Shown here: positions 510 to 27,438 of the stretch, one piece after another | Layout of the letters: every line of letters starts with the position of its first letter | Position numbering within the stretch: the first letter of the stretch is position 1 | Program-made: the position numbers and the translations under genes | From: an uncultured Anaerolineae bacterium | GTDB taxonomy: Bacteria; Chloroflexota; Anaerolineae; Anaerolineales; Villigracilaceae | Direction: 5' to 3' | Length of the DNA stretch: 38,770 nt | Assembly (NCBI GenBank): GCA_903846015.1 | Contig: CAIMZS010000482.1 | Location: forward strand, 1-38,770 | The notes under the pieces: generated by a model | What the model was told of the DNA's origin: nothing | The model's input: only the letters and a program-made list of their open reading frames with translations | Databases searched by the model: none

Positions 510-3500
510 ATCAACCAGACCGGCAAGCATGGCGAGTGGGGCGGCTGCCTGACGGGGTGTTGGTTCCGCCTCAATCAAAACAGCAGGCTCAAAAACTGGC
601 GGCGGGACAGCCAGCGGGTTGACAAATACAGTCTCGGCTGAAGAAATTCCGATAGTGCCCGTTCTAGCAGGGCCATCCTGCATGCTGACAGGCTCAAGAC
701 CAGCGAGCAGCTTCATCAGGGCCTGGGTTTGTTCCGCATGCTGACGCATAAACTGCTCATGCACACGCGTGGCATCAGCTTGTTGTTGGATAATTTGATT
801 CAAGACAGCCGCAGCGGCTGATGGAACTACCGCTTCGCGTGCCGAAACAGGCGCAGGCGGTTCCGAGACAATCCTTTCCCCGGCCGCTTCCCCGGCAGGT
901 ACAGGCGCGTCACAGGACATAAATGTCCGAACTAAACCGGTGGGGGGCTCACTCGGTGCGGAACTCGCCAGCGCGGTTTCGTACATGGCGCGCGTGCGCT
1001 CACTGACATAGTTACTGCCATTCAGTTGGATGCTGAGCGTGCGCCGCTTAGATTCAGGAATTTTGGAAATCGCTCCAAAAGGATCAATATCACGAAGCTG
1101 CAGACCCGCCACACGCAGTTGGGCAACAGCTTCACGCAGCTGCCGGTCACTATCCTTGCGCAGCCGCAGCCCAGCCTTTGAGGCTTCTTGTGAACTTGGC
1201 GACCGTGCTAAATCCGGCACTGACGCGGAACCCAAATTGAGCGCCACAGCCACGTGCTCGCGACCAGCCAGAATATTTTTCACCAAATTGGTCAGGATGT
1301 TGCGCGGACCGAACTCAATAAACAGGGCAGCACCCGCCGCAACCATGTTTTCGATTTGCTGCGTAAACAGAACGGGTTGCAGTAAATGCTGTGAAAGTTG
1401 TTCTTGAATGGCTGCGGGGTCTGAAGGGTACGGCTGAGCAGTGGCATTGGCATATACCGGCAGCGACGGGCTTTTAAATTCAGCCGCCCGGATGGCTTCT
1501 GCAAATGGCAGCTGGGCGTGCCCAACCAGCGGTGTGTGGAAGGCGGCGGCTACAGGCAAATTTGTGACAGTGTATCCCTTGTTTTGCAGGGCAGTTTGAG
1601 CAGCCTGGATGGCTGTGGTCGGTCCCGCCAGCACCACCTGGTTATGCGCGTTCCAGTTCGCCAGATAAACACCTGGAAGATGCTGCAGTTCAGATTGGAG
1701 CTGGGCGTATGAACCCGTGACGGCCAACATTGTGCCGGCATCAAAGCCAGGGTGCGCAGGTGGGGCCATGCTGGCGCCACGCGCCTTCATCAAATGGAAA
1801 TATGTCGGCTCGTCCAACACGCCAGCCGCCCATAACGCCGTCAATTCACCAAAGCTGTGACCCGCCACGAAATCGGCGCGGAAACCCGCTTCGGTAAATA
1901 ATTGATACAATCCGGCACTGAGCGCGCCGATGGCAGGTTGGGCGTAAGCGGTACGCTGCAAGGCTTCCGTTTGAGCGCGTTGCGCCTCAAACCCCGCTGC
2001 GGGAGGGGGATAAACTACTTGCGAGACTGGCGTCTGCCCGCCAGCTCGGAAAAGGGCGTCGATCTTGTGGAAGGCTTCACGCAAAACAGGGAAATTAAGC
2101 AGCAGCTCGCGTCCCATTTCCAGATGCTGGGCACCCTGACCTGAAAACAGTGCGACAACCTTACCCTCCAAAGCTCTGCGACGATAGAACAAACCCCGGG
2201 GATGCTGCCAGACAGCTTCGCCCGCGCGGGTGTGAAGATGTTCAGCGGCAAGCGTGAGCAGTTCACAGGCATCTTCAATCGATTCGGTCACAAAGGCAAG
2301 CCGAGCTTGGCCTGGGCTGACAACGCTGCTGCTTGCGTCGACTGCATTTGCAAAACTACGCCGGCTTTCAGGCGATTGCAGTTGGGCATTGAGTTCCATT
2401 ACACGAACGCGCAATGCCTCAGGGGTGGCCGCATGCAGCAAAATCATTTGGGCATGGCGATGAAGACGGTAAGGAGCGCGCTGTTCCGGCTCGTATTCTT
2501 CCATGACCACGTGGAAGTTGGTGCCGCCAAACCCAAAGGCGCTGACACCGGCGCGGCGTGGATGCTCCCCGCGGATCCACGGGCGGGTCTCAGTATTCAA
2601 ATAAAAGGGTGAATTTTCGATATCCAGCTGTAGATGTGGTTGTTGAATATTAATGGTGGGGGGTAAAACCTTGTGATGCAGCGACAATGCAACTTTAATC
2701 ATGCTGGCTGCACCCGCCGCGGCCTTGGTGTGTCCAATTTGCGATTTGACGCTGCCCAGGGCAATATGCTGGGGCTGAGGCTGTGAATGGGGATAGCCCG
2801 AATTGGGATCGCGAAATACCTGGTTGAGGGTGGTAACTTCACATAAATCACCCGCCACGGTACCAGTACCATGCGCTTCGATCAGACCAACGGTATCGGG
2901 CGAAAAGCCAGCTGACTCATAGGCGCGCTTGAGCGCCAAAGCCTGGCCCGCGGAACTGGGCGCATAAATGCTCTTATAACGACCGTCACTGGAAGCTCCC
3001 AGCCCTTTGATAACCGCGTAAATCCGATCGCCATCGCGCTCAGCATCCGCGAGACGCTTGAGCACAAGGATGCCCAGACCTTCTCCGATCAGCATGCCAT
3101 CCGATTCAGCATCAAAGGGCTTGATCTCATTCTTTTTTGAGAAAGCCGGGGTCTTGCTAAAACTCATGTACATGAAGATGGAGTTATCAGTATCCACACC
3201 GCCGGTCAACATCATGTCGGTTCGTCCGGCGGTCAGCTCGCCAACGGCCATTTGAATGGCGCTGAGGGAACTGGCACAAGCCGCATCGACGACACAGTTG
3301 ACGCCACCGAGATCGAGCCTATTGGCAACGCGCCCCGAAATAACATTGCCGAGCATACCGGGGAAGGAATTTTCCTCCCACGGTATATAAGCCAGTTTCA
3401 TGCGTTCAACGGCGGCCAGCACCATTTCATCACTGAGGCCCAAACTGCGTAAAACTTTTTCCCAGATTGGATACTGGAGGCGAGAAGTAAGCGGGGTGAT

Positions 3501-3917
3501 CAGTTTTTGGCCGCCGCCGATGCCTAGAATGACACCGGTGCGCTGGCGAACTATCTCACTTGCCGCTCCGTAGCCAGCGTCTTCCATGGCCTGCTTGGCT
3601 ACCACCAGGGTTAGTAGCTGCGAGACATCGGTCAGTTCAAGGATATTCGGTGGCAAGCCAAACTCGAGGGGGTCGAAAGAAATATCAGGAATAAAACCAC
3701 CGCGCTTGCAATAGGTTTTATCCGGCTGGCTGGGATCAGAATCATAATAATCTGCAATATTCCAGCGGGACAAAGGCACATCGGTAATGCCATCTATCTT
3801 TTTAACAATATTATCCCAATATTCGGGCAAGTTAGCTGCTTTAGCAAAAATCGCCGATAATCCGACAATCGCAATTGGCGTGGCGAGACGATGAGATGGT
3901 AAATCAGATATAGTCAT
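1..3917 (-). CDS. PUFA-synthase-like type I polyketide synthase (KS-AT-ACP-ACP), 3' end outside window
   Basis: The reading frame starts at the ATG at 3917 (weak AAAGAG ribosome site) and stays open for about 1305 codons to the left edge, so the gene is partial. The N-terminal ketosynthase shows the active-site Cys214 (DAACASSL) and His349 (EAHGTGT) and His396 (IGHTKAA), the usual Cys-His-His triad. An acyltransferase follows, with GQG at about 593-595, Ser688 in GHSFGE and His794 in AAFHTP. After a Pro/Ala/Glu-rich linker come two carrier domains with the motif LGIDSIKRVEIL; the phosphopantetheine serines are about S1167 and S1299. This ACP motif and the KS-AT-multiple-ACP order are typical of PfaA-type polyunsaturated fatty acid synthases and related iterative PKSs (family knowledge). 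The product cannot be told, because the reductive domains would lie off the left edge. The linker holds one in-frame copy of the dispersed repeat (residues about 1082-1089). The gene follows the CIS operon on the same strand after a hairpin, so it is probably a separate unit. Confidence 0.9.
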   Translation of the reverse strand, partial: MTISDLPSHRLATPIAIVGLSAIFAKAANLPEYWDNIVKKIDGITDVPLSRWNIADYYDSDPSQPDKTYCKRGGFIPDISFDPLEFGLPPNILELTDVSQLLTLVVAKQAMEDAGYGAASEIVRQRTGVILGIGGGQKLITPLTSRLQYPIWEKVLRSLGLSDEMVLAAVERMKLAYIPWEENSFPGMLGNVISGRVANRLDLGGVNCVVDAACASSLSAIQMAVGELTAGRTDMMLTGGVDTDNSIFMYMSFSKTPAFSKKNEIKPFDAESDGMLIGEGLGILVLKRLADAERDGDRIYAVIKGLGASSDGRYKSIYAPSSAGQALALKRAYESAGFSPDTVGLIEAHGTGTVAGDLCEVTTLNQVFRDPNSGYPHSQPQPQHIALGSVKSQIGHTKAAAGAASMIKVALSLHHKVLPPTINIQQPHLQLDIENSPFYLNTETRPWIRGEHPRRAGVSAFGFGGTNFHVVMEEYEPEQRAPYRLHRHAQMILLHAATPEALRVRVMELNAQLQSPESRRSFANAVDASSSVVSPGQARLAFVTESIEDACELLTLAAEHLHTRAGEAVWQHPRGLFYRRRALEGKVVALFSGQGAQHLEMGRELLLNFPVLREAFHKIDALFRAGGQTPVSQVVYPPPAAGFEAQRAQTEALQRTAYAQPAIGALSAGLYQLFTEAGFRADFVAGHSFGELTALWAAGVLDEPTYFHLMKARGASMAPPAHPGFDAGTMLAVTGSYAQLQSELQHLPGVYLANWNAHNQVVLAGPTTAIQAAQTALQNKGYTVTNLPVAAAFHTPLVGHAQLPFAEAIRAAEFKSPSLPVYANATAQPYPSDPAAIQEQLSQHLLQPVLFTQQIENMVAAGAALFIEFGPRNILTNLVKNILAGREHVAVALNLGSASVPDLARSPSSQEASKAGLRLRKDSDRQLREAVAQLRVAGLQLRDIDPFGAISKIPESKRRTLSIQLNGSNYVSERTRAMYETALASSAPSEPPTGLVRTFMSCDAPVPAGEAAGERIVSEPPAPVSAREAVVPSAAAAVLNQIIQQQADATRVHEQFMRQHAEQTQALMKLLAGLEPVSMQDGPARTGTIGISSAETVFVNPLAVPPPVFEPAVLIEAEPTPRQAAAPLAMLAGLVDAMLAVVSEKTGYPVETLEVGMDMESDLGIDSIKRVEILGAMQTRYPNLPRLKPEELAELRTLAQIIEHMNRSFPKNSGIGMQEDTSLRSNSLASLEQPIRQEPRATAPAFSASVAIEQASQTSGIDFAELTQAMLAVVSEKTGYPVETLEVGMDMESDLGIDSIKRVEI
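651..675 (-). repeat. Mosaic repeat module A, inside the PKS linker
   Basis: The plus strand reads GATAGTGCCCGTTCTAGCAG followed by GGCCA. Read in the PKS frame it encodes GPARTGTI. Near-identical copies lie at 8327, 17853, 21913 and 25766. Confidence 0.85.
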
Positions 3918-4142
3918 ATTTGCTCTTTACTGAATGGGAAGGAAATTTCAAATATACCTGGATGCTTCGATCAGGCATAATCCAAAGGCGGGGTTCCGGT
4001 TTCTACACAGGAAGGTAGAAATTATAAACCCTACCGCCTTTAAACTACAACACCCCAACCCGTAATTAGACACGCTTGGGCGATAAAGCCAACTTTTTCC
4101 TGTATTATGCGACTCAATACTTGAATTAATCCCCATCCCTCG

Positions 4143-4184
4143 CTAGTCCCGGTTCTAGCGACAGTGCCGGTTCTAGCACGGTCA
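4143..4184. repeat. Mosaic repeat module A, two tandem copies
   Basis: Two adjacent, slightly different copies carry GTCCCGGTTCTAGCG and GTGCCGGTTCTAGCACGG. They lie between the terminator-like hairpin and the PKS upstream region. Confidence 0.8.
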
Positions 4185-4185
4185 C

Positions 4186-4216
4186 GGCGGCCCCAAACTA
4201 AATGTTTGGGGCCGCC
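4186..4216 (-). terminator. Strong hairpin at the end of the CIS operon
   Basis: A perfect 13-bp inverted repeat (GGCGGCCCCAAAC with its complement at 4204-4216) encloses a 5-nt loop. It sits 23 bp downstream of the last CIS stop codon. No U-tract follows on the minus strand, so it may be a U-less terminator or an mRNA 3'-end stabiliser. Confidence 0.6.
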
Positions 4217-4238
4217 CCTTCCCTGGCAAACAAATCCG

Positions 4239-5570
4239 TCAAGCAGAATTGTTTTCCCTTGACGTAGCCGGAATAAGGCCAGAACCGCGCAAATTGATCA
4301 GTTTGGACAACAAATCAAACCAATAAGAAGCTCCCTGGGATACAGCCATCGCCATGATCACAAATCCAAGTAATTTACCCAACGGCGTTGTGTTCGGGTT
4401 CGGCACGGCATCCGTCAAACCAGCGAAGCACTCCGTCTCGGAAATTCCCCACAGCCCTCCCAACCTTTGTTGAAACCAGTTACAGTTTGCCCCATTTTGT
4501 GAAACAACATAGGTTGCCGGACGCCAACCTATGGGTAGCTGCAAATCTTGCCCTAGCTTCGCATTGAGTTCATTAATAGCAGTGGCAGCTTCTTTGGGGT
4601 TGGAAATTGGTGTCCCATCACTGGTTTGGTTAAGCTGATATTTCAGAGCCTGCTGCACCACACTCTGACGCAAGGTTGGGTCCCGCCAAAGTGTCGTTGT
4701 GATATTCATGGCATCCACATTCAACATCAGCGCCAGGATAAACCCGGCCAACCCCAACCACAATTGGGTGCGCCGCTTGTAAAAACCGCCAGCGCGGTCC
4801 ATCGTATCATCGAACCACTGCTCCACATTGCGGCGAGCCGCAGCGAGCTTCGGATCGCCTACTGCAAGGGTCGCATCCAGCCCGGTAAAGAGACTCGTGA
4901 TCAACTGCGCCAATTCAGGGCGTACCTGTGTAAGTTTTGCCACGCTCGTGCGCAGCTGCTCCAGGTGCAGATCGCCATCAGTGGTTATCGCCTGAATTAA
5001 AGCGTTAAAGGTCTGCGGTGAAATATGGTAATTTTCAAGGAAGCCACTAAGTTCCTTATTCAGGCGTGGAGGCAGGGAAATCCCGGCGATGGATTCATCG
5101 CTCTGGCCTTCAACGCGGGCACTTTCTACCAGGGCCTGGATGTCAACCAGTAATTTAATAAGTTCCGGACCAGCAGTAGCAGGCAAGGCTGCCAGCAGAT
5201 GATTTTTTACCTGTTCAAGACCCAACCGCGCCTGCCCAATGCTGGATGACTCAGAACCGGCTGTCAATATGACATCGAACAAGGCCAACGTAAAATTACT
5301 GGCAGGGATGTAAGAAGGTTTCGATCCAGGTCGTACAAGCGAGGCTATCAGCGGATGCGCATACAACATATCCGCTAACACCAGCCCTTCCTTATCCAAT
5401 TTTCCTTTAACTTCCGGATCGTTCAACATGGAGCGGATCGAATTTTCAAGTTCTTTGGCCCGCCAACCTCGATAACTGGCGACCCATTCAACGATCTGCG
5501 AAGAAACCATGCTCATTAAAATGAAGACAAAGAACAGACCGATGGCTGTTTCGATGATCGCTTCAGGCAT
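4239..5570 (-). CDS. Three-TM membrane protein, last gene of the CIS operon
   Basis: The protein has 443 aa with the start set at 5570, where GGAGG sits 5 nt upstream of ATG (MPEAIIETAIG). A longer frame reaches 5702 but reads through repeat DNA. Hydrophobic segments lie at residues about 7-24, 269-289 and 397-419. Between the first two is a long, soluble, helix-rich domain, and a conserved-looking stretch (WFDDTMDRAGGFYKRR) stands just before the second. I recognise it as a widespread bacterial hypothetical family but cannot name a function. As the only clear integral membrane protein of the operon, it is a candidate for docking the injection particle at the cytoplasmic membrane. This is inferred from position and topology; a co-encoded membrane protein (CisA) is known for Streptomyces CIS, but I see no specific sequence link to it. 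Confidence 0.85.
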   Translation of the reverse strand: MPEAIIETAIGLFFVFILMSMVSSQIVEWVASYRGWRAKELENSIRSMLNDPEVKGKLDKEGLVLADMLYAHPLIASLVRPGSKPSYIPASNFTLALFDVILTAGSESSSIGQARLGLEQVKNHLLAALPATAGPELIKLLVDIQALVESARVEGQSDESIAGISLPPRLNKELSGFLENYHISPQTFNALIQAITTDGDLHLEQLRTSVAKLTQVRPELAQLITSLFTGLDATLAVGDPKLAAARRNVEQWFDDTMDRAGGFYKRRTQLWLGLAGFILALMLNVDAMNITTTLWRDPTLRQSVVQQALKYQLNQTSDGTPISNPKEAATAINELNAKLGQDLQLPIGWRPATYVVSQNGANCNWFQQRLGGLWGISETECFAGLTDAVPNPNTTPLGKLLGFVIMAMAVSQGASYWFDLLSKLINLRGSGLIPATSRENNSA

Positions 5571-5872
5571 CCGAACCTCCTCCCGGTTTTTTGCAGAGGT
5601 GTAAACCAATCCGGGATCAACCTCAAGATGATTCGCGCGTAAAACGGGTATTAACTCTGTTCGCGCACGAGAGAGATAGATATACAACCATTCTGGTTGC
5701 AATCACACGCAAAATTTGAATATTTCCGGATCTTCTCGTTCTATTTGGAACTGGAACGGTGGTCCCGGTTCCCAAACGAGACGGTTCAGACACTCGCTCT
5801 TGCTCTAATCTGGACCATCCTCGTAATCAACGAAAATCTGCGGTTCAGACACGAGGCGCGAGAACGGTCTGT
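5571..5872. other. Repeat-rich intergenic region inside the CIS operon
   Basis: This 302-bp gap separates the DUF6519 gene from the membrane-protein gene. It carries degenerate repeat modules: a GGTATTAAC module at 5646-5672, an A-like copy at 5760-5780 (CCCGGTTCCCAAACGAG), and two exact copies of CGGTTCAGACAC at 5782-5793 and 5841-5852. A small inverted repeat (CAACC/GGTTG) sits near 5688-5702. No gene is seen. Confidence 0.6.
5646..5852. repeat. Cluster of degenerate mosaic repeat modules
   Basis: The modules match others in the window. TATTAAC..TGTTC resembles 9490 and 25745, CCGGTTCCCAAACGAG resembles 26431, and CGGTTCAGACAC is also found at 21936-21947. Confidence 0.65.
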
Positions 5873-7153
5873 TTAAGCAGCCGTTTCCTTTCCCAAATAA
5901 TCGATCGTTCTGCGGCAGTCTTGAATCCAATTGAATTGGGTTGAATCTGACTGCACTATCGCCAGTGGCGCAAAATGATGCTGGATACCGCGCGGAGGCA
6001 GGGACGCTGGTTTATCACCCACCAGCGGCCATTCGATCTCGCCAGTTGCGACCCGGGCCGGGATCAACCAGTAATCTCCGGAGAAATGATCATTGCCAGA
6101 TTCAAAAAATACCTGGATGCCATCTTCCAAATCGATCCAAATATCCTCAACGCCCTGGACAGCACCGTTGTTCCACTTGACATCCCCGCCTTCGCGTTGG
6201 TCCCAGCGGCGGATCTTGACCAGGCTGGCAGGGTCCCAACTCTTCTCGGGTCCCGATTCAAGATAAAGAGCATCCCCTTCAACCTTGATCACCCTGGTCA
6301 GCTTGCCGGGTAAATTATTTAATTCTTCTATTTCGCTGGTGATCTCAACCCAACCACCCGCTTCAAAACCACGGACGCTGCTGACCACCAACCCGCCATC
6401 TTCATTATTGCCCAACCATGCCGCCACTATTGATCCATTTTCCCGCGACCATTTAAAGGTCCAGCTTTTAACTTTGGTTCCATCTCGAATGACCTCATGG
6501 ATCTCAACCCGGTACAGTTGGTTCTCCGCACCCCGGTATTTTGAATCCGGCGCTGTGATGCACGGATCAGCCTGGGCATCTTCCTTTACTAAATGCGCCT
6601 GCATAGGTCCCTTAAGCTTGGGATCCATTAAATCGGCGAGTGGAATATAGATGTCATCACAATTTACAGCGGGCATAAGTTTTACTTGCCAGACAACCTT
6701 TGCCCGTGTGGCAGTATCCGGCCCACCAAGCGCCACTTCACGAATCAAATTATCATCAAGATCGGTGATATGCCGCTCCCAAACATCCAGATAAACGGCA
6801 TAACTGCCTCTTTCCCAAAAGGTTGGCATGTTAGTCTTTAAATTAACCAAAGGGAAATCGGGCTGGTCATCATAAGTACATGGGGTTTCGTTTTCGCATA
6901 AAATTCCATCGACATAATAACGTCCGGCTCCAATGATCAGGCTTTGGGCCTTCACCTGGATTTCAAATCCTTTTTTCCCTGCCGGTCCGCCATGAGGTCC
7001 GATCAGATCGGCAGCCAGGGTTTCTAAATAGTGCAGCAGAATGGCAGCCTGCTCGTTCCAATCAGCATCCAGCTGCACCCGCCCTTGCTGCATCAATACC
7101 CGGCTAAAGTGCCTGGCAGGATCAAATGTATCTCGAGTAAAGTCGCCTTTCAT
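5873..7153 (-). CDS. DUF6519 family protein of the CIS operon
   Basis: The protein has 426 aa; AGGAGG lies 6 nt before the ATG and overlaps the stop codon of the upstream gene. The N-terminus (MKGDFTRDTFDPARHFSRVL, then QQGRVQLDADWNEQ) is the recognisable signature of the DUF6519 family, which recurs in phage-tail-like and contractile-injection loci (family knowledge). The rest is rich in beta strands and Gly/Asp, with no signal peptide or membrane segment. A surface, fibre-like or baseplate-decorating role is the likely reading, because the gene follows the tail-protein-I-like gene where phages place fibre genes. That role is inferred; no receptor-binding motif is visible. Confidence 0.85.
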   Translation of the reverse strand: MKGDFTRDTFDPARHFSRVLMQQGRVQLDADWNEQAAILLHYLETLAADLIGPHGGPAGKKGFEIQVKAQSLIIGAGRYYVDGILCENETPCTYDDQPDFPLVNLKTNMPTFWERGSYAVYLDVWERHITDLDDNLIREVALGGPDTATRAKVVWQVKLMPAVNCDDIYIPLADLMDPKLKGPMQAHLVKEDAQADPCITAPDSKYRGAENQLYRVEIHEVIRDGTKVKSWTFKWSRENGSIVAAWLGNNEDGGLVVSSVRGFEAGGWVEITSEIEELNNLPGKLTRVIKVEGDALYLESGPEKSWDPASLVKIRRWDQREGGDVKWNNGAVQGVEDIWIDLEDGIQVFFESGNDHFSGDYWLIPARVATGEIEWPLVGDKPASLPPRGIQHHFAPLAIVQSDSTQFNWIQDCRRTIDYLGKETAA

Positions 7154-7162: not shown

Positions 7163-9472
7163 CTAATTGACAAAGATAATACCGGCATTCATACCTGCCG
7201 GGCTGAATTCATCCAGGCGCGCGCGCAGATTAGCCTCGCGCTGCGGCTGGAACAAGTCGTGAAAGACACCCAATTCAGATTCATCATCCGCTCCGCGCTT
7301 GATTTCATCCGCGCAAGTTGCCGATAATTGGCAAAAAGTGGGCACGCCATAAAGCGTGCTGGTGAACTGGGGTTTCAGCCGTTCGCGTTCCAACTGGCGT
7401 TCGAAGTCCACTTGTACCCTGGTGATTTTTGGGTTGGCAGCCCGTAGTTCGTTTTCCCTTGCCTGTTCCGCTGTTTCAGGCTGACAGTGATAACGCTTGG
7501 GAGTCCGGCAGCCATGTGGAATATAACAAAACCGCATGCAGCCAATCTGACGGCGGGCCACATTTACGCAATCGTTAAATATACTGTTTTCTGCCAGTTC
7601 GATCGCATGCACAGCGAGCATGCCAAAAATGGTACTACGCTGGATGATCAGGGACACATGCGCGATGCTTCCGATCCTGTCTGGGTTGCACAGTGCATAA
7701 TGATCGACTGTGGCATCATCATCCTCCGTTGCATCAATAATACTATCGCTGACATGAATTAATATTGGATCGCTGCCGACATCATCCGCTTCAACCTGGA
7801 TGGCGCCCAGGATGCTGTGCTCGATTCGCACGTTCACATTTGCCTGGTCCAGTTCAAGGCTTGGTTCGGTCGGTTCGTTCGGATTGCAGTCGTAATCAAG
7901 TCCCCAACCTGGTACGAGCGTACAATGCCTGATAATCAGCCGACCACGGCAGTCATTAATATGGACTTTCTCGAGGTCACTCTCACTTGTCACATATACC
8001 GGGCGATTGGCAATCATCAAGCCATCCAATGTCAGGCAGCTGCCAGCCCCAAGCGTAACGTTAAAGGCATCCGGCGCCGCAATGGACAAATCCGGGATTG
8101 AAAGCACCGGACGATAATGGTTGCCCGCCCGGATTTGCAGACTGTGATCCTTGTTGAGTTTTATGTTAAATGGGATGGTGATGAAATCGTTGCTCTCAAT
8201 TTCAATCACCGCATCCTTGGGCTGCTGGTCAAGGGTTGGATCGCTTTCACTTGGCGTCCATGGGCGCAGCGCATCTTGCAGTCTTTCCTGTATGCTCGCC
8301 GGCAGCCTGGAAGAACGCTTTTCTGCGATATTACCCGTTCTAGCAGGGCCAAGGAAGGCCATTGGGTCAATCGGGTCGGCGCCTAGCACAATCACCATCG
8401 CGTCGCGTGCCTGGATCATCTGCCGGTCATATTCTCCGCCTCCAATTTCAGCGCTGAAACCATAATGATAGGTGACTGAAACCTGTATACGCTCATTGCG
8501 TTTGGGCAGCATGGTTGGAGAGAAATGCATTTGTCCACGCACCGGGTCAACTGCCACCTGCCCATCCCTGGGTTGATATTGCAACCCGGTCAGGTCGGCC
8601 ACAACCACGCTGCTAGCCGGTAAAAGCGCACCGTTAACCCAAATAGCAAAACTTTTATCCTCGCCGTAATAAGCCGATAGGTTGTGAAACAACTCCCGCC
8701 GGGGTATTGCAGCCGGAAGATTTCTCTGACCTGCCGGCTCCGATATTCCTGATTCGGGCCTGGTGAAGAGCGGCATATCGTTCCCCATTGGGCTGAAACC
8801 AAAACAATGCCAGTTTTTTTCCAGGCTGCGCGCTTGGGCGCGGGTGGATGGCAAAGACTTTAAACGGCAGGTAAACAAGCCCACACTCGGGATGTTAAAA
8901 CGCCCCTGCTGTCCATTGGAGTTGATCCGCCGCACATCCACTGTATGCCCAAAAGTATCATAAGGGCCATCAATACGGTCCAGGGCATGCCCACGGCGCA
9001 CATCTACAGTGCGGGCCCGCTCAAGATGTCTATGATTGATATTTTGCGTCCAGCCCAACCGTTTAAAAAATTCAACCGCGTACGCAGGCCAACCGGCCAC
9101 GGTATTCGACAATTCTTCCAAAAGTGCCAGGCTCCCTTTGCGGCGGCGGTATCGGATAGTGTTGGCTACTTCGCGCCGAGGGAACAGGATTCTGTTACGC
9201 ATTTGGGTTTCTAGCGTGTCGATTGCGCCAGGCTCACCAGCCTGGTGCTCGGGCTGATAACCCACCAGCTCCCCAATGTATGGCACCACCCAATCCTGGG
9301 CGGTTTCAATAAACCAGTTATCATACATCTGCCGGATGTCATCTTCGACCACATCTGCTTGTTCATTGATGACAGCCAGCAAGGCGCGCAAAGGAAAGCC
9401 TTGTTCGGCATCGCGCTGGCGGTAAATATAGGGTAATAAGTTATACAATCGATCAGTTTCGGTAGCATTCAT
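7163..9472 (-). CDS. Tail protein I-like baseplate protein with long C-terminal extension
   Basis: The protein has 769 aa and starts at ATG 9472 behind GGAG. The N-terminal ~100 residues (LYNLLPYIYRQRDAE, AVINEQADVVEDDIRQMY, DWVVPYIGELVGY) match the phage tail protein I / gp7-like wedge pattern that links the baseplate to fibres. The remainder is long, with a beta-rich repeat-like region (about 440-620) that looks like a beta-helix, and a Cys-rich part near 640-720. It lies directly after the two giant baseplate proteins, as in other contractile tails. Residues 375-382 read GPARTGNI, encoded by an in-frame copy of mosaic repeat A at 8327-8351 and absent from the family as I know it. The fold assignment of the C-terminal part is tentative. 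Confidence 0.85.
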   Translation of the reverse strand: MNATETDRLYNLLPYIYRQRDAEQGFPLRALLAVINEQADVVEDDIRQMYDNWFIETAQDWVVPYIGELVGYQPEHQAGEPGAIDTLETQMRNRILFPRREVANTIRYRRRKGSLALLEELSNTVAGWPAYAVEFFKRLGWTQNINHRHLERARTVDVRRGHALDRIDGPYDTFGHTVDVRRINSNGQQGRFNIPSVGLFTCRLKSLPSTRAQARSLEKNWHCFGFSPMGNDMPLFTRPESGISEPAGQRNLPAAIPRRELFHNLSAYYGEDKSFAIWVNGALLPASSVVVADLTGLQYQPRDGQVAVDPVRGQMHFSPTMLPKRNERIQVSVTYHYGFSAEIGGGEYDRQMIQARDAMVIVLGADPIDPMAFLGPARTGNIAEKRSSRLPASIQERLQDALRPWTPSESDPTLDQQPKDAVIEIESNDFITIPFNIKLNKDHSLQIRAGNHYRPVLSIPDLSIAAPDAFNVTLGAGSCLTLDGLMIANRPVYVTSESDLEKVHINDCRGRLIIRHCTLVPGWGLDYDCNPNEPTEPSLELDQANVNVRIEHSILGAIQVEADDVGSDPILIHVSDSIIDATEDDDATVDHYALCNPDRIGSIAHVSLIIQRSTIFGMLAVHAIELAENSIFNDCVNVARRQIGCMRFCYIPHGCRTPKRYHCQPETAEQARENELRAANPKITRVQVDFERQLERERLKPQFTSTLYGVPTFCQLSATCADEIKRGADDESELGVFHDLFQPQREANLRARLDEFSPAGMNAGIIFVN
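8327..8351 (-). repeat. Mosaic repeat module A inside the tail-I-like gene
   Basis: The plus strand reads GATATTACCCGTTCTAGCAG then GGCCA. It differs from the PKS copy at 651 by two bases. In frame it encodes GPARTGNI. Confidence 0.85.
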
Positions 9473-9489: not shown

Positions 9490-9553
9490 AAGTATTAACC
9501 CGGTTCCCGCATCAACCGCAGGGGCGCAGCGCTACTGCGTCCACGGCCACGAG
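9490..9553. repeat. Composite mosaic repeat between two baseplate genes
   Basis: A TATTAACCCGGTTCCCGC module (9492-9509) is followed by the GC-palindromic module B (9520-9553, core GCGCAGCGCTACTGCGTCC) and ends in GGCCACGAG. It fills almost the whole gap between the 769-aa and 1287-aa genes. Confidence 0.8.
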
Positions 9554-17714: not shown

Positions 17715-17852
17715 GAAATAATCCTGGTACTCGCCTGAAGTAAATCGAATCTAAATTTATTCTTTCTTAACATAAAAAGTGTTTTACTGCCATGCTGAAG
17801 AACTGCCGCTTTTTAATAAAATTTCACTTGCTTATAGCCTTATTCTCATTGC

Positions 17853-17910
17853 GATAGTGCCCGTTCTAGCAGGGCCGAGGAGCGTGCTCTCCGCGACGTG
17901 GCAATCCGAT
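17853..17910. repeat. Composite mosaic repeat (modules A and C) between hub and spike genes
   Basis: Module A (17853-17877, identical over 24 bases to 651-674) is joined directly to module C (17878-17910; GAGCGTGCTCTCCGCGACGT then GGCAATC). It lies in a 278-bp AT-rich gap that shows no gene. Confidence 0.85.
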
Positions 17911-21484: not shown

Positions 21485-21628
21485 TTGGTTTCTCCGATAT
21501 TAATCACGATTCCCAATAATTTTATAAATCGAACAATCTTCATACAGAAGTTTGTCAGGCTGTTCTGGTTTCAATTTGACATGAAACCAGTTCCTGCTCA
21601 TTGCTCGCAAAATGGGAATGCAGGGCAT

Positions 21629-21892
21629 TCATTTTGTGTTTCCAATTCCACTGTAAACAGATTGGGCAATTTGGATGCCCAATTCGGCCGGGCTGCTGCC
21701 GGGTGACAACTGCATCGGGCCGGCTTCCAGGTTGCGCAATACTCCACCACTCTGCAGTCCCGAAGAAAGGCCTTGTTCCGTCAATAGGCGCGTTAATTCG
21801 GCTTCAATAGCGGTCTGCAGAAGCATATTCTGACCGCGTTCAAGCTGCAGTCCATCCAAAATCAGGCGCTCAATGTGTAAATTTATGTTCAT
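21629..21892 (-). CDS. Small conserved CIS-operon protein
   Basis: The protein has 87 aa (MNINLHIERLILDGLQLERG, then a Leu/Gln-rich helix). Short proteins with this start often stand between the AAA+ ATPase and the DUF4157 gene in eCIS clusters, which is its position here. I know no function. The helical prediction and location suggest an assembly or cargo-loading adaptor, but this is conjecture. The Shine-Dalgarno site is weak (GGAAACC). Confidence 0.75.
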   Translation of the reverse strand: MNINLHIERLILDGLQLERGQNMLLQTAIEAELTRLLTEQGLSSGLQSGGVLRNLEAGPMQLSPGSSPAELGIQIAQSVYSGIGNTK

Positions 21893-21912
21893 AGGTTTCC
21901 ATCACCATCAGC

Positions 21913-21947
21913 GATAATGCCGGTTCCAGCAGGGCCGGTTCAGACAC
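21913..21947. repeat. Mosaic repeat (module A plus CGGTTCAGACAC) at the AAA+ gene stop
   Basis: GATAATGCCGGTTCCAGCAG is followed by GGCCGGTTCAGACAC. The copy overlaps the 3' end of the AAA+ gene: its TGA at 21940 and last residues (MPGV) lie in repeat sequence. Confidence 0.75.
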
Positions 21948-24153
21948 CAGGCATGAGCTGGAACTCCGCTTCGTTGATCTGCTTATCCAGTTTGCGGTAT
22001 TCGCTTCGAATAGCAGAGAGTACCACCGGCATGCTGACCTTTGAATTGTCCTGCGCCGCCATAAAAGCCGCGTTTAGCGCAATGCTGTGAATATTTCCAC
22101 CAGTGATATTGAAGCGTGCCAGACGATCATAATCCAACTCTTCGATAGGCGTTTTCGCAGGGAAAACCTTTTGCCAGATATTTTTACGCTCATTTGGACC
22201 AGGAAATGGAAAATTAACAATGAAACGCAGCCTTCGCATAAAAGCCGTGTCCAGCGCGGATTTCATATTGGTTGCCAGGATGGCCAGTCCGCGGTAGGTC
22301 TCCATCCTTTGCAGCAGATAATTAACTTCAATATTGGCATACCGATCATGGCTGTCCTTTACCTCGCTGCGCTTGCCAAACATAGCATCCGCCTCATCGA
22401 AGAACAGGATTGCCCCGCCGTCCTCGGCGGCATCAAATAACCTGCGCAGGTTCTTCTCTGTTTCGCCGATATATTTACTGACCACCGCTGAAAGATCGAT
22501 CCGGTAAAGATTTAATTTCAGTTCGTTCGCGATCACTTCAGCCGCCATGGTTTTACCGGTACCGCTCTCGCCAGCAAACAAAGCGCTAATACCCATTCCG
22601 CGGTTCATTCTTTCAGCAAAGCCCCAATCTTCGTACACCGTTTGGCGCTGCCCAACCTGGTGGGCAATTTGATGCAGCAGGTTGGCTTGTTCCACTGGCA
22701 GCACCAGGTTATCCCAACTCTCTTTTAGTTCAATCCTCTGGGCCAGAGCGTCCAACCTTGGGCGGGTCGCGGTACAGCATAGTTCCCATAATCTGGCCCC
22801 AAGCATTGTCAAGTTGGCGTCTGACCCGTCAACCGCCAACTTGACAATCTGCGAAATACTGGTTTCATTCAAGTTAAATTGAGCGGCAAGCTGCCTGACT
22901 CCCAAACTTGACCTCATTTCCGTGCTGCCCTGCGAATCGACCAAGAAATACCTTGCCAGTGCAGATTCCCAAAGTTCTTGTTGTTCAGCCGTGCTCGGCT
23001 TATCGATATCGACTGAAAAATTTGCGCGGGAGAGCTGTGTCCAATTTTCACGCGTACCCAGCAAAAGAATGCCATCTGCCCGTGAAATAAACCTTTGGAT
23101 CAATCCAAATGATCCCTGATTCCCTGCTCCATCAGCCCCACCCAATTCTTGGACATCCAGATAGAGCGCCACCGGATTCAGTGCACTCTCACGCTGCCAT
23201 AAACGCGCCAGAGTCTCAAGGTCACTCAGCTGCGCCGGCAAGTTTTCGGCTGCCAGTGTATACACTTTCAAGCCCAGCGCCTGAGCAGCCTGCGCTGCTA
23301 CCAACTGTTTGCTGATTGGGTCCGGCCCCAGCAGTTGGGCAATCGGCAGCTGGCTGGATTCCGCATCGTGTTCAGCAACGCTGTTTTGCCAATGAGCGAT
23401 AATGGCATCTGCCGCGGCCTGCTGCGAAGGTGGCAGCTGCAGGACCTTAGATAAAGGAGAAAGCAGGATAGACAAACGGTCATCCAGGCCGCTCATCCCC
23501 TTTAAATAATTGACAATCCGTTCATCGGCGCGCACAGCGCTGGTGGTCAGCGGCTGCGCCCCAGGTTGGTTGATCTCTACCAGGCGCCAGTATCGAAGCG
23601 GGCGGTCCGCTGCCAAAGCATCCCAGGCAGGGTCATCAAAAAGCGCCATAGCCAACGCAAAAGTCGCGTAGCGGGCATTTGGATCGGCTTGCGCCCGCGC
23701 ACATAAACCCGCAATCCGCGTGTCAAGTTCGAGCGCTGCGCATAATAGCAGCACATTTTGCTCGAATGGTGTCAAACCCAGGCGCTGCCCTAATTCCTCC
23801 AGCGCCGGGGCCGGCTCCATTTGGGCAGCTGATTCGCGCGCAGCCTGAGCCATTTTCAATCTTTCCTGGGTGGCGCTTACCGGCGGCGCATCGCTCTCGA
23901 GTGGAGTGCTTATCATTCCAACCGGGCGGCTGAATAACTGCTGCCAGAAAACCGAAGACGATACTCCCGGTTCCTGCACGAGACCAGCACGGCGATTTAT
24001 CGCAGTGGGCATTACCAATCCCGGTGCGCTTCCCATTTCATCAAATAATGCCTGTGAATTTGAGGAAATCATCATCTCCAGCTTGAGCCGCAGCCAGGCT
24101 AGTGAACAGGAAAGATAATTCGTATTACCGTCGAGCCAGGTTTGTGCGTTCAT
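21940..24153 (-). CDS. AAA+ ATPase of the CIS (Afp15/Pvc15-like)
   Basis: The protein has 737 aa; its ATG overlaps the stop of the DUF4255 gene (ATGA). The C-terminal AAA+ module has Walker A GESGTGKT at 528-535, Walker B ILFFDEAD near 582-589 and downstream RRLRFIVNFPFPGP (sensor/arginine-finger region). An upstream module (about 200-400) aligns in general shape with a AAA domain but has lost Walker A (GPDPISKQ). This two-module layout matches the eCIS ATPases that are needed for particle assembly or cargo loading (family knowledge). The last residues are encoded within a dispersed repeat, so the C-terminus may differ from relatives. Confidence 0.93.
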   Translation of the reverse strand: MNAQTWLDGNTNYLSCSLAWLRLKLEMMISSNSQALFDEMGSAPGLVMPTAINRRAGLVQEPGVSSSVFWQQLFSRPVGMISTPLESDAPPVSATQERLKMAQAARESAAQMEPAPALEELGQRLGLTPFEQNVLLLCAALELDTRIAGLCARAQADPNARYATFALAMALFDDPAWDALAADRPLRYWRLVEINQPGAQPLTTSAVRADERIVNYLKGMSGLDDRLSILLSPLSKVLQLPPSQQAAADAIIAHWQNSVAEHDAESSQLPIAQLLGPDPISKQLVAAQAAQALGLKVYTLAAENLPAQLSDLETLARLWQRESALNPVALYLDVQELGGADGAGNQGSFGLIQRFISRADGILLLGTRENWTQLSRANFSVDIDKPSTAEQQELWESALARYFLVDSQGSTEMRSSLGVRQLAAQFNLNETSISQIVKLAVDGSDANLTMLGARLWELCCTATRPRLDALAQRIELKESWDNLVLPVEQANLLHQIAHQVGQRQTVYEDWGFAERMNRGMGISALFAGESGTGKTMAAEVIANELKLNLYRIDLSAVVSKYIGETEKNLRRLFDAAEDGGAILFFDEADAMFGKRSEVKDSHDRYANIEVNYLLQRMETYRGLAILATNMKSALDTAFMRRLRFIVNFPFPGPNERKNIWQKVFPAKTPIEELDYDRLARFNITGGNIHSIALNAAFMAAQDNSKVSMPVVLSAIRSEYRKLDKQINEAEFQLMPGV

Positions 24154-25511
24154 GTCAGGTTGATTTGCTGTGAATCGTCAAACTTCGGATGGCTGGGATC
24201 GCTGCGGTCAATAAACGGGCTATCGACCCCATCAACCCTCAACCGCAGGCGAAAACTGCCGGCGGCGATGGCGGTTAATGCGAAGCTGAGCGTATCCGTC
24301 TTGGCAATATGCGCACCGGCTGCTACTTCCCTGCTGCCCAATATCAGCGAGACGCTTTGTTCAGGAAGGACGTCCGGGGTACATTTGATACTCAATATCA
24401 CATTCCCCAATCCGTTTTGCACATTGCTCCGGACGACGTTGATCGGAGCGGCTGGGGGAATGGGTAAAATAACTGCGTTGATTTGCAAGATCTTTGGCGC
24501 AATAAATAATGCCAGTTCATTGCTCTCCTCCATCTCGAGTGGTTTCCCATTTGGAGACACCTGGGCTGAAACTGCATACAAACCCGCCGGGTAATAGATC
24601 CCAGGCAAGTGCGGAATAGTCAGCTTGATTGTTTGGTCCGTGCGCTGCGCTGCCAGCACATCCGCCCGGATCGGGTTCGGCAGCCGCTTATTAGAGAACA
24701 AAACACTCACGGTCACCTGCGACGAATTACCCTTATCCCCTGCCAGGCTGTGTCCGTTCAGAATTATCTGATCATTCATCTGGGCACTGACCTGATTTTT
24801 CGGCAGGTCGATCCGCTCCAATGATGCAAATGGGGATACCAGGTCGGATTGCGCCTGAGGACCCTGGTCTTGCGGTCCCTGAGAAAGAACAGGCAGCGCA
24901 GAACGGGTGGCCTTACTGGCCTGGATCAACACAACAGAGATCTGGTATGCAGCGGTTGGCCGGTATCGCGCCTGTGTAGCCGTCCACAGCTTTGATACTT
25001 CCTCTGTGGAAAGGCTCTCAGGACTGATTTTTATCAATTCAACCTGTTCTGCCAGGTCAGTAGTCGACAACATTTGCAAACCAGCTGGAAGTGTTACACC
25101 GTTTGGCAACGCTGGTTTGAGGGTCGCGTTGATCATCGCACGCGTCAAAACCGGGTTTTCATGCAGCACTTGCATCGCATAGCCCAGCAACGCCTCAGCA
25201 TGGAATTCAGCATCACCATAAGCGGTCACTAGATAATGCAAGTCAAGCGCCAACGGCGGGTTGGTCAGTCTTCCACCTGCTGCGTAGTCCCGTGATGGCA
25301 ATCCGACATTCCTCCAGCCAATGTTGGGTGTCACGTGATAAAGGAAGATGTTAATTTGGCCCTTCTCCTTGTCACCGGTCAAAACCCTATCAGGAGGCCA
25401 GGCGGTTACACTGATACCTCCTACTGCCGAAAGGTCATGGTCAGCCAGCCCGTTATTTAATAGGTCTTTCAGAACGGCGGTCACCGCTGCGATTGCAAAC
25501 GCGCTGCTCAT
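24150..25511 (-). CDS. DUF4255 / Pvc16-like tail terminator protein
   Basis: The protein has 453 aa; its ATG overlaps the stop of the preceding gene. The N-terminal ~190 residues show the DUF4255 pattern (AIAAVTAVLKDLL, INIFLYHVTPNIGWRN, LALDLHYLVTAYGDAEFHAE). Afp16/Pvc16 proteins cap the tube and sheath end and set particle length. The C-terminal ~250 residues look like two Ig-like beta domains (DQIILNGHSLAGDKG, NAVILPIPPAAPINVVRS), an extension seen in several bacterial homologues. A short PQDQGPQAQS linker separates them. Confidence 0.92.
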   Translation of the reverse strand: MSSAFAIAAVTAVLKDLLNNGLADHDLSAVGGISVTAWPPDRVLTGDKEKGQINIFLYHVTPNIGWRNVGLPSRDYAAGGRLTNPPLALDLHYLVTAYGDAEFHAEALLGYAMQVLHENPVLTRAMINATLKPALPNGVTLPAGLQMLSTTDLAEQVELIKISPESLSTEEVSKLWTATQARYRPTAAYQISVVLIQASKATRSALPVLSQGPQDQGPQAQSDLVSPFASLERIDLPKNQVSAQMNDQIILNGHSLAGDKGNSSQVTVSVLFSNKRLPNPIRADVLAAQRTDQTIKLTIPHLPGIYYPAGLYAVSAQVSPNGKPLEMEESNELALFIAPKILQINAVILPIPPAAPINVVRSNVQNGLGNVILSIKCTPDVLPEQSVSLILGSREVAAGAHIAKTDTLSFALTAIAAGSFRLRLRVDGVDSPFIDRSDPSHPKFDDSQQINLT

Positions 25512-26650
25512 TGACTGCCTCCCTGCCTTTGGCGCAGGTATTCATCCAAACTCATCGTTGCAGCCAAAGGTGTAGTTCGTTTTACTGGGGCATTGGCTGG
25601 GCTGGCTTTGATCTCAATATGGCCAATCGTGACATAAATGCTCGCAGGTTCTGAATTTCGTCTCTGCGCCTGTATCGATGCAATTTTGGATTGAAATTCA
25701 CCAGAAGATTGGCTCGACTCAATCCTTGGTGAAATTTGTTTGACGGGTATTAACCCTGTTCCCGCGATAGTCCCGGTTCTAGCACGGCCATGAGAATAAC
25801 TCTCATCTTGATCCCTGTTTTGCTGAGCAGGCAACTCATGCTCAACCGCCTGGTTGAGGGAGACCTTTGCAGAGCTGACAGTTACCCCGGCAGAATTCTG
25901 TTTCGATAGTACCGGTTCTAGCAAGGACGCAGCGCTGTGTCCCTGGCCACGAGACACGAGACTTTCCGGCCTTAAAGGAGGGTTTAATGTTCCTCCCAGG
26001 CTTTTGTTTTGGCGCGCATCCTGTTCGCCAGTCCGTATCGGTTCGTTTTCCAAACTCTTCGAGCTTTCCACTCTTTTCGTTCCACTGGCTGGGATATGTT
26101 GAGTCGTTTGGTCGTCTGACCTGAGCCAAGAATCGTTACCAGTGTTTTCTGTCAAATGCCTGTCTTCGCGCCTTGTACTGGGAACCAGAGATGGAGCCTG
26201 CGGTAGGGACGCAACGCTGCTGCGTCCGTCCACGGCCAAAGACTGGATCATCTTAGGCATTAGCGCTGTTAGATGGGCTTCTTTATCATCACTGCGGTAA
26301 TTTTGGGCACTTTGCCATCCTGCTCTGCGATTCATTGGGTTTTGAATGACTTCGCTTGCATTGGAGAGTGTTTCGGTCTCATCCAAATCAATATCCATCA
26401 ATTCCTGGTTCAACCTGGGCAGAGTGTCGCGATAATCCCGGTTCCCGAACGAGGCAGTCATAGAAGGTTCAAAAGTGGAAGCCAACCGCGGTCTTAATAC
26501 ACCTGCACCCGTATCATTATTCCGAGCATCGATCCCATTTGGCGCGTTCCACGGTAGTCCTGATTCCCTCGGTGGGGACGCAACGCTACTGCGTTCGGCC
26601 ACTTCACGGATAGCTCGTGTGTATAAACTGCTTAGAAAATCTTTCTGCAT
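25508..26650 (-). CDS. Disordered, repeat-riddled CIS-operon protein with conserved C-terminal tail
   Basis: The protein has 380 aa and is mostly polar, low-complexity and probably disordered. The recognisable part is the C-terminus (about 336-378): IYVTIGHIEIKA, then TPLAATMSLDEYLRQRQ. This tail pattern recurs in proteins encoded upstream of DUF4255 genes in CIS loci. At least five segments derive from dispersed repeats: ERSSVAS (19-25), FGNRDYRDT (68-76), DGRSSVASLP (141-150), GHSAASLLEPVLS (237-249) and GRARTGTIAGTGLIPV (288-303). The frame stays open through all of them. It begins 2 nt after the upstream stop. The function is unknown; a flexible linker or scaffold is possible. Confidence 0.75.
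   Translation of the reverse strand: MQKDFLSSLYTRAIREVAERSSVASPPRESGLPWNAPNGIDARNNDTGAGVLRPRLASTFEPSMTASFGNRDYRDTLPRLNQELMDIDLDETETLSNASEVIQNPMNRRAGWQSAQNYRSDDKEAHLTALMPKMIQSLAVDGRSSVASLPQAPSLVPSTRREDRHLTENTGNDSWLRSDDQTTQHIPASGTKRVESSKSLENEPIRTGEQDARQNKSLGGTLNPPLRPESLVSRGQGHSAASLLEPVLSKQNSAGVTVSSAKVSLNQAVEHELPAQQNRDQDESYSHGRARTGTIAGTGLIPVKQISPRIESSQSSGEFQSKIASIQAQRRNSEPASIYVTIGHIEIKASPANAPVKRTTPLAATMSLDEYLRQRQGGSQ
25745..25790 (-). repeat. Composite mosaic repeat inside the 380-aa gene
   Basis: GGGTATTAACCCTGTTCCCG is followed by CGATAGTCCCGGTTCTAGCA and CGGCCA. In frame it encodes GRARTGTIAGTGLIPV. Confidence 0.85.
25915..25954 (-). repeat. Composite mosaic repeat (A joined to B) inside the 380-aa gene
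   Basis: GATAGTACCGGTTCTAGCA runs directly into the palindromic module GGACGCAGCGCTGTGTCC and ends in CTGGCCACGAG. It encodes GHSAASLLEPVLS. Confidence 0.8.
26202..26241 (-). repeat. GC-palindromic module B inside the 380-aa gene
   Basis: GGTAGGGACGCAACGCTGCT is followed by GCGTCCGTCCACGGCC. The core is palindromic (GACGCA..TGCGTC). It encodes DGRSSVASLP. Confidence 0.85.
26431..26453 (-). repeat. Degenerate mosaic module inside the 380-aa gene
   Basis: GATAATCCCGGTTCCCGAAC then GAG matches the 5760-5780 copy and the first half of module A. It encodes FGNRDYRDT. Confidence 0.65.
26572..26610 (-). repeat. GC-palindromic module B near the start of the 380-aa gene
   Basis: GGTGGGGACGCAACGCTACT then GCGTTCGGCCACTT. 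It encodes ERSSVASPP in the same frame as the other B copies. Confidence 0.8.
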
Positions 26651-26652
26651 GG

Positions 26653-27438
26653 CTACCCGATCTGTTCCAAATAGAATTGACGCCGCATTGGGCTGAGAGC
26701 CAGGATGTCTGCCTCACACCAACCATAATTACTGGCAATCTTGTGCACATCACCCAGCAGGCGTATCGCCCAAGCGTTGATTTCAATCCACAAAGTTGAA
26801 ATGATATCGAATGGAGCAGACCACTGCCAGGCGCAAGCCGGGCAGGATAACTCTATCTGTATATCAGCCTGCGGATCATTCTGCGCCATCTGATTGGAAA
26901 CACTCTCCACCACCTTGTCAGGCAGGTCAACAACAGCAATCGGCCTTCCGCCTTGAGTGGCCTGCTGTACGCATCTTTCCAGCAGGGTTTGGCGAGCCTG
27001 CCTGGCTGTCGGCAAGTTCGCGATCGCAAGCATATCAGCGCTGTTTGGCAGCCGGAACTGGATATCGCAATCTTCGACAGTCAAAGTGTACGGTAGGAAC
27101 GCAGCGCTGCTGCGTCCGGCTACCTCCACGGCCATCCGCTCAAACAAATGGGCTGGTTTCGGCTCGGACGAGCGCATTTGTGCAAGATCAAGCGCCAATT
27201 CCAGCTTCTCTCCGCACTGCGGACAGGAAGTCACGCAAGTGAGATGCCTGCCAAATAAAGCCTCGCGGATCTCCATCAACCTGATATCACGTTCTCCAAC
27301 GGGCAGCGCTTTAATTTGTTCAAGCGAGGCTTCGAGATGGATGCTGGCCAATAAGTTGATGGCGCGTTGAAGCGGGCGTTCATTCAAGCTTCGCTCCCAT
27401 ACGTCAAGCAGATCACTGGTCGTCAATACGCTGTCCAT
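26653..27438 (-). CDS. gp51/gp26-like baseplate protein with split zinc ribbon
   Basis: The protein has 261 aa. Two cysteine pairs, CPQC at 72-75 and CPAC at 199-202, suggest a zinc ribbon split by ~120 residues. The surrounding pattern (RDIRLMEIREALFG, FRLPNSADMLAIANLP, PFDIISTLWIEINAWAIRLL) matches the T4-like baseplate/hub assembly family found just after the tube gene in bacterial CIS loci. An assembly or chaperone role is inferred from the phage relatives. Residues 108-116 (GRSSAAFLP) are encoded by repeat module B and form an insertion between the first Cys pair and the next conserved block. Confidence 0.82.
   Translation of the reverse strand: MDSVLTTSDLLDVWERSLNERPLQRAINLLASIHLEASLEQIKALPVGERDIRLMEIREALFGRHLTCVTSCPQCGEKLELALDLAQMRSSEPKPAHLFERMAVEVAGRSSAAFLPYTLTVEDCDIQFRLPNSADMLAIANLPTARQARQTLLERCVQQATQGGRPIAVVDLPDKVVESVSNQMAQNDPQADIQIELSCPACAWQWSAPFDIISTLWIEINAWAIRLLGDVHKIASNYGWCEADILALSPMRRQFYLEQIG
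27092..27133 (-). repeat. GC-palindromic module B inside the gp51-like gene
   Basis: GGTAGGAACGCAGCGCTGCT then GCGTCCGGCTACCTCCACGG. It encodes GRSSAAFLP, matching the peptides from the copies at 26202 and 26572. Confidence 0.85.

What the first reader, a model, noticed from the sequence alone, without database searches (positions are those of the whole stretch)
651..27133. Repeats sit in frame inside unrelated genes and add the same peptides
Module A encodes GPARTGTI in the PKS linker (about 1082-1089), GPARTGNI in the tail-I-like protein (375-382) and GRARTGTI in the 380-aa protein (288-295). Module B encodes DGRSSVASLP and ERSSVASPP in the 380-aa protein and GRSSAAFLP in the gp51-like protein. 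One reading phase recurs and no copy breaks its gene. This is like the in-frame palindromic elements of Rickettsia, here in a very different lineage. It could be selection for tolerated insertion or a mechanism that favours coding phase.
Basis: partly seen in the sequence, partly recalled or inferred. Interest (0 to 1): 0.85.

Follow-up and report, generated by a model that had tools for sequence, protein, structure and literature searches.

The report
24-base repeat adding 8-residue peptides
A 24-base repeat occurs more than 360 times in one draft Anaerolineae (Chloroflexota) genome and lies in frame inside dozens of otherwise different predicted genes, in the clearest cases adding eight amino acids that relatives' proteins lack, most likely because copies that broke a gene were weeded out rather than because the repeat aims for a reading frame.

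Summary
The in-frame repeats are real and genome-wide. Module A is a 24-nt unit with 364-386 matches in the window's own genome. Nine of 10 congeners have none, the tenth has two, and 395 other genomes of the class hold one 2-mismatch hit. In 1.13 Mb examined, 75 of 213 copies (47 predicted genes) lie inside genes. Orthologues of a NAD kinase, a family-B DNA polymerase and a rhamnosidase lack exactly eight residues there. The 56 genic arrays use all four stop-free readings about evenly (17, 14, 14, 11), and no genic copy was found in the two TAG-bearing readings. Sister units with 23-nt and 25-nt tandem periods are rarer inside genes (2 of 50 and 7 of 64, against 63 of 202). Insertions avoid Pfam domains (9 of 52 arrays, against 47% of residues). 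The peptides show no amino-acid constraint (23 synonymous, 41 non-synonymous changes; p=0.60). This fits random insertion of a frame-neutral unit followed by purifying selection. It works like Rickettsia palindromic elements but is 4-6 times shorter, tandem-forming and in another phylum. What moved it is unknown. New variant of a known kind.

The parts
650..673 (+). Module A (24 nt) inside the PKS gene 3-3917 (-); reads GPARTGTI on the gene strand
4159..4182 (+). Module A, intergenic, preceded by a partial unit (nested type)
8326..8349 (+). Module A inside the tail-I-like gene 7163-9472 (-); reads GPARTGNI
   Evidence: none of 119 homologues contains ARTG or RTGTI and 110 have all eight columns empty
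17852..17875 (+). Module A, intergenic
21912..21935 (+). Module A, intergenic, just past the stop codon of the AAA gene
25765..25788 (+). Module A inside the 380-aa gene 25508-26650 (-); reads GRARTGTI
25904..25927 (+). Module A inside the 380-aa gene in a second phase; reads SLLEPVLS
29893..29916 (+). Weak, diverged module-A match (5 substitutions as counted), outside the main genes; not in any count
23959..23983 (+). Sister unit A3 (25 nt, 3 substitutions) inside the AAA gene 21940-24153 (-)
26430..26454 (+). Sister unit A3 (25 nt, 3 substitutions) inside the 380-aa gene
26207..26227 (+). Module B (21-nt imperfect palindrome) in the 380-aa gene; GRSSVASLP
26576..26596 (+). Module B in the 380-aa gene; ERSSVASPP
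25925..25942 (+). Shortened module-B-like stretch abutting module A in the 380-aa gene (GHSAAS)
   Evidence: by eye
27097..27117 (+). Module B in the gp51-like gene 26653-27438 (-); GRSSAAFLP
   Evidence: two distant homologues differ and are gapped in this stretch
9522..9542 (+). Module B, intergenic

Best explanation
A 24-nt repeat (CGATAGTGCCSGTTCTAGCASGGC), predicted to fold into a short hairpin, is dispersed in more than 360 copies in this one Anaerolineae genome, and its copies inside genes are in frame most likely because it inserted without regard to phase and purifying selection then kept only tolerated insertions. The unit is eight codons long, so neither one copy nor a 24-nt tandem array shifts the frame (shown), and four of its six readings lack stops (shown). 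Genic arrays fill those four readings about evenly and none was found in the two TAG-bearing readings inside a gene (shown in the sample). Sister units with 23-nt and 25-nt tandem periods are rarer inside genes (shown), which fits a filter on length modulo 3 (inferred). The peptide looks like tolerated filler: depleted from Pfam domains (shown), no amino-acid constraint detected (shown, low power), low confidence in one modelled loop (predicted). Insertions fit C^R dinucleotides, and copies nested in other repeats sit at TCT(A)G^C. No mobilising enzyme was identified; copying in trans through a single-stranded hairpin by a lost or unrecognised enzyme, followed by tandem duplication, is my inference.
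For: 364 copies at up to 2 mismatches and 386 of a 25-mer at up to 3, reversed control 0. Absent from 9 of 10 congeners, 2 in the tenth. 75 of 213 sampled copies genic. Phases 17/14/14/11 over 56 arrays, p=0.73; orientation p=0.50. 33 read through against 1 stop, null one third, p=1.9e-5. Homologues lack the insert: NAD kinase, 118 of 119 with all eight columns empty; polB, clean 8-residue gap in 4 of 6 rows; rhamnosidase, in the closest of 5 non-self rows. 24-nt unit more often genic than the 23-nt (p=2e-5) and 25-nt (p=0.001) sisters. 9 of 52 arrays inside Pfam envelopes against 47% of residues, p=9e-6. Synonymous:non-synonymous 23:41, p=0.60. Positions 11 and 21 complementary in 201 of 213, shuffle mean 109. 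NAD-kinase model: insert in a loop with pLDDT below 50 at 133-138.
Against: A3 (25 nt) is not absent from genes (7 internal of 64; 12 of 74 with looser limits), and E has 6 of 52 with looser limits. Sister families differ in more than length, so modulo 3 is not isolated. The stem covariation could reflect only one or two founding changes. No mobiliser found: the two Y1_Tnp matches have no unit in their 3-kb loci. Insertions were compared with homologues for few genes, and several are composites rather than one clean unit (XdhC 17 residues, MobA-like larger, cytochrome b about 7). The genome is a fragmented draft with 5.85% estimated contamination.
Confidence: 0.8

Rival explanations
1. Insertion itself favours coding phase (for example by recognising codon-phased or transcribed DNA), so one reading recurs without selection.
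For: In the window three of four genic module-A copies share a phase and all copies share an orientation.
Against: Across 56 genic arrays the four open readings are used evenly and orientation is unbiased. Arrays are 14 times denser between genes than in them. Module B falls in five orientation/phase classes.
Confidence: 0.04
2. The peptides are useful (a tag, linker or binding motif) and are kept by positive selection in the proteins that bear them.
For: Same peptides in many different proteins, some as tandem repeats, e.g. IVPDLARP in PKS-type linkers.
Against: Four different peptides from one DNA unit; no excess of synonymous change (23:41); most copies are intergenic.
Confidence: 0.07
3. 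The units are REP-type elements moved by a RAYT or IS200/IS605-like Y1 transposase acting on a single-stranded hairpin.
For: Short hairpin with complementary changes, high copy number, nested insertion at a fixed short target.
Against: Only two Y1_Tnp matches, neither with a unit in its fetched locus, and 8 of 10 congeners, 7 of them without the unit, have such matches too. The GTAG/CGTC tags of the main REP families (recalled; a paper title) were not looked for as such.
Confidence: 0.3
4. Assembly or library artefact: adapter-like or chimeric sequence in a draft genome.
For: Fragmented draft genome; arrays lie at several contig ends.
Against: 83 distinct 24-mers, nesting at fixed sites in other repeats, avoidance of stop readings and domains, and two similarly nested copies in another genome of the genus.
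Confidence: 0.02

Closest known systems
Rickettsia palindromic elements (RPE) and the related Wolbachia elements
   Same: Selfish-looking repeats inserted in frame in many conserved genes as well as between genes (passages of PMC2229807 and PMC10969869)
   Different: RPEs are 105-150 bp with long stem-loops; here 24 nt with a predicted 4-bp stem, tandem arrays, four readings in use, Chloroflexota
REP elements / REPINs / BIMEs
   Same: Short (20-40 bp) high-copy hairpin repeats in mosaics (abstract starts seen)
   Different: Those are chiefly extragenic; here about a third of sampled copies are genic, and no RAYT partner was found
ERIC, Correia and other bacterial MITEs with in-frame fusions
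   Same: In-frame fusion to host ORFs; in Correia the stop-free 107-bp form is found in genes and the stop-rich 155-bp form is almost exclusively intergenic (passages of PMC2229807), the same kind of filter as here
   Different: About 100-200 bp with terminal inverted repeats; no length-modulo-3 set of sisters was seen in the passages read
PARCELs and Methanocaldococcus jannaschii coding palindromes
   Same: Palindromic coding repeats inside proteins; PARCELs form tandem arrays (passages of PMC2996958)
   Different: No sequence comparison made here; PARCELs are described as amphipathic repeat coding sequences of other microbes

Membership tests
Rickettsia palindromic element | In-frame insertion in conserved protein genes, absent from homologues | tested here: met
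Rickettsia palindromic element | Size about 105-150 bp | tested here: not met
   Unit is 24 nt (27 of 31 adjacent pairs at period 24)
Rickettsia palindromic element | Long palindrome / terminal inverted repeats | tested here: not met
   Predicted 4-bp stem with 9-nt loop only
REP / REPIN | 20-40-nt hairpin repeat in high copy number | tested here: met
REP / REPIN | Associated RAYT (Y1) transposase flanked by the repeats | tested here: not met
   Two Y1_Tnp matches, no unit in their loci
REP / REPIN | Extragenic | tested here: not met
   75 of 213 copies genic
MITE | Terminal inverted repeats shared with a full-length IS, and target-site duplication | tested here: inconclusive
   No such repeats in 24 nt; aligned empty sites leave at most a 1-nt (C) ambiguity; no parent IS was searched for beyond Y1_Tnp and RVT_1

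The most novel reading that the evidence does not exclude
A minimal coding-neutral mobile hairpin: among three sister units of 23, 24 and 25 nt in one genome, the 24-nt form reached the highest copy number because a length divisible by three let it colonise coding sequence as well as spacers, turning dozens of enzymes into carriers of 8-residue tags and giving a natural experiment on how selection filters insertions by length modulo 3.
Probability: 0.4. Interest if true: 0.82.

Novelty: new variant of a known kind. Interest (0 to 1): 0.68.

Why it matters
In-frame selfish repeats have been described mainly as elements of 100 bp or more. Here a unit of 24 nt lies inside a family-B DNA polymerase, a NAD kinase, a cytochrome b and dozens of other predicted genes of a Chloroflexota genome. 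The 23/24/25-nt sisters allow one to measure, within one genome, how frame, stop codons and protein position filter new insertions. It also shows how unrelated proteins come to share a short peptide without homology, which can mislead motif searches and annotation.

Tried and rejected
Phase-favouring insertion: against it, uniform phases.

Y1/RAYT as resident mobiliser: two matches, no unit in their loci; 8 of 10 congeners have matches too. Reverse transcriptases: five RVT_1 matches, no unit in the fetched loci; not classified further.

Comparable repeats in congeners: a 14-mer scan of 156-200 kb each of G001, G002, G008 and G010 (10 stretches each) showed none at six or more copies except one 16-mer at 7 in G001; stretches, not whole genomes. 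Viral contigs: no exact match.

Window genes against homologues: the tail-I-like site is length-variable; gp51-like had two homologues at 38-45% identity in 40 relatives; the 380-aa protein is an orphan; the PKS linker was not tested.

Other results against a neat picture: of seven genes three gave clean 8-residue gaps, XdhC a 17-residue gap in 4 of 6 rows, cytochrome b about 7, MobA-like a larger composite, and the MoCoBD gene no aligned row among the 30 loci fetched. At 35 simple genic sites G at -1 was 14 (p=0.054), so the TCT(A)G^C preference rests on nested copies. In one search, with looser gene limits, D1 and D2 each have one genic copy. A pattern slip: the letter R in my regular expression was literal and always cost one substitution, so 'up to 4' there means up to 3 real ones; one search repeated the count without it (225 copies, 63 internal to well-scored genes, 139 intergenic, 23 at edges or in weak genes).

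Literature: searches listed no paper on such repeats in Chloroflexota as far as titles and abstract starts show; only passages of three papers were read.

Full report
What is there. The window is contig C482 of a 6.5-Mb, 662-contig draft genome, 97.4% complete with 5.85% estimated contamination. The congener G008, which carries the same 24-mer, is deposited as an uncultured Anaerolineae bacterium; Anaerolineae is a class of Chloroflexota. Module A is a 24-nt unit, CGATAGTGCCSGTTCTAGCASGGC; adjacent copies are 24 nt apart in 27 of 31 pairs. The genome holds 386 matches of a 25-mer pattern at up to 3 mismatches and 364 of the 24-mer at up to 2, none for the reversed control.

Where it occurs. 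Nine of ten congeners have none and G008 has two; 50 other genomes of the family and order have none. Of 395 other genomes drawn from the class, some of them also, one has a single 2-mismatch match. The named genome collection gave one contig, that of the congener (records very near the window's own genome may be left out there). Viral contigs gave none. The expansion is specific to this genome as sampled.

Sample and gene calls. I fetched 1,095,588 bases of the genome. Most contigs were picked because they carry exact copies; most is every third contig from C465 on (155,286 bases; 8 copies, 3 genic). With the window this is 81 stretches and 1,134,358 bases, 17,554 of them N. Genes were called with my own hexamer model (coding fraction 0.867). 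Of 213 module-A copies, 131 are intergenic, 7 overlap a gene end and 75 are inside 47 predicted genes, 42 of which score 30 or more. Per base, arrays are 14 times denser between genes.

Phase. On the host strand the unit can read GxARTGTI, AVLEPALS, DSAGSSTA or IVPVLAxP; the other two readings contain TAG. The 56 genic arrays use these 11, 14, 14 and 17 times (uniform, p=0.73), without orientation bias (p=0.50); in 41 arrays well inside well-scored genes the result is the same (p=0.46). In the window the copy at 25904 already departs from the phase of the other three. Because ORF calling hides stop-bearing copies, I also asked which arrays have flanks that form one ORF when the array is skipped: 33 are read through and one meets a stop, against one third expected (p=1.9e-5). 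By eye that one is the end of one gene beside another. In this test 17 of 180 arrays were too near a stretch end and 129 had no such flanks, 18 of them called genic.

Homologues. The NAD kinase carries AVLEPALS between GGDGTARDIFAAV and GAQLPVLGIPAGV. In 118 of the 119 best homologues the eight columns are empty, and one has five residues there; the nearest, 84% identical, is 383 residues long instead of 391. A family-B DNA polymerase carries GPARTGTI after NISPETT: matches in three congeners span 696 nt against 720 here, and four of six rows show a clean gap of eight. The rhamnosidase gap is eight in the closest of five rows. XdhC has a 17-residue insert in four of six rows, a composite that is again a multiple of three nucleotides. 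Cytochrome b differs by about seven residues and the MobA-like protein by more. For the tail-I-like protein none of 119 homologues contains ARTG or RTGTI, and 110 have all eight columns empty, but the region varies in length.

Why this unit. Two sister units share the core CCGGTTC: E with a 23-nt period (4 of 4 adjacent pairs) and A3 with 25 nt (8 of 9). Counted by hand on one consensus unit, six and five of their six readings are stop-free, more than the four of A. Yet inside well-scored genes they are rare: E 2 against 48 intergenic, A3 7 against 57, A 63 against 139 (Fisher p=2e-5 and 0.001). Two other repeats, D1 and D2, have none internal (0 against 42 and 46; one each with looser limits). 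Length modulo 3 is the simplest account, though the families differ in other ways.

Position and peptide. In 43 Pfam-scanned proteins 9 of 52 arrays lie inside a domain envelope, although envelopes cover 47% of residues (p=9e-6; best stretches, two repeat regions set by hand; the other 4 of 56 arrays were in unscanned short ORFs). Within genic copies 23 substitutions are synonymous and 41 not, as expected without constraint (p=0.60). A model of the NAD kinase (mean pLDDT 86.6, 48 sequences) puts the insert in a loop between a helix (119-130) and a strand (143-147), with pLDDT below 50 at 133-138.

The unit itself. Positions 11 and 21 are complementary in 201 of 213 copies (G-C 123, C-G 78; shuffle mean 109, maximum 129), consistent with a stem GCCS/SGGC around GTTCTAGCA. 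On 30 of the 83 distinct copies, chosen by eye, the covariation score was 0.261 against 0.126 shuffled. One or two founding changes could explain this. Inside other repeats the unit sits at one place: in E 14 (48 matches intact), in D1 22 (55 intact), within itself 19, all TCT(A)G^C. Simple genic sites share C^R: C next to the unit in 31 of 35 and a purine after it in 33 of 35. The two copies of the congener are preceded by E-type units in the same way.

How it most likely works. Insertion of a frame-neutral 24-nt unit without regard to phase, local tandem growth, and loss of insertions that break genes or core folds account for these observations. What copies it is open: two Y1_Tnp matches without units nearby, and one to three such matches in 8 of 10 congeners.

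What is known. RPEs and similar elements are the closest in effect (passages of PMC2229807, PMC10969869 and PMC2996958; other papers seen as search listings only). They are about four to six times longer. The literature searches listed no counterpart in Chloroflexota. Failing the size and palindrome tests, this is not filed as an RPE; it works like one. I call it a new variant of a known kind.

Noticed in passing
G000 contig ends, e.g. C56:60-156, C124:19-115, C158:49-121, C211:22-118: Tandem arrays of the 24-nt unit lie at contig ends, so the assembly probably breaks there and true arrays may be longer.
   Followed up: no
window 4239-29737: The cluster holds a Pvc16_N-domain protein, an AAA protein, a T4_baseplate-like protein and tail-like proteins, which looks like an extracellular contractile injection system (label recalled), next to a PKS; a match to two of its proteins was found in 2 of 40 relatives, neither a congener.
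   Followed up: partly
window 1-130 and 397-526: Two 130-nt copies, 94% identical, in the PKS ACP region; contig C471 (L075) begins with three similar ACP units whose linkers carry IVPDLARP or IVPDLPRP, so it may continue this PKS.
   Followed up: partly
window 25508-26650: The 380-aa ORF carries at least three module-A/A3 units and three module-B stretches and has no homologue but itself in the search; it may be partly built from repeats.
   Followed up: partly
G000 intergenic regions, e.g. L018-L037: Spacers are mosaics of several other short repeats (E, A3, D1, D2: ATGGTACCCGGTTCTGCACGGGC, CGATAGTCCCGGTTCCAGCACGAGG, AAATCTGCGTAAATCTGCGGTTCAGACA, CTTGCTCTAATCTGCGTAATCATC).
   Followed up: partly
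window 22805-22848: A near-perfect 21-nt inverted repeat with a 2-nt spacer inside the AAA gene.
   Followed up: no
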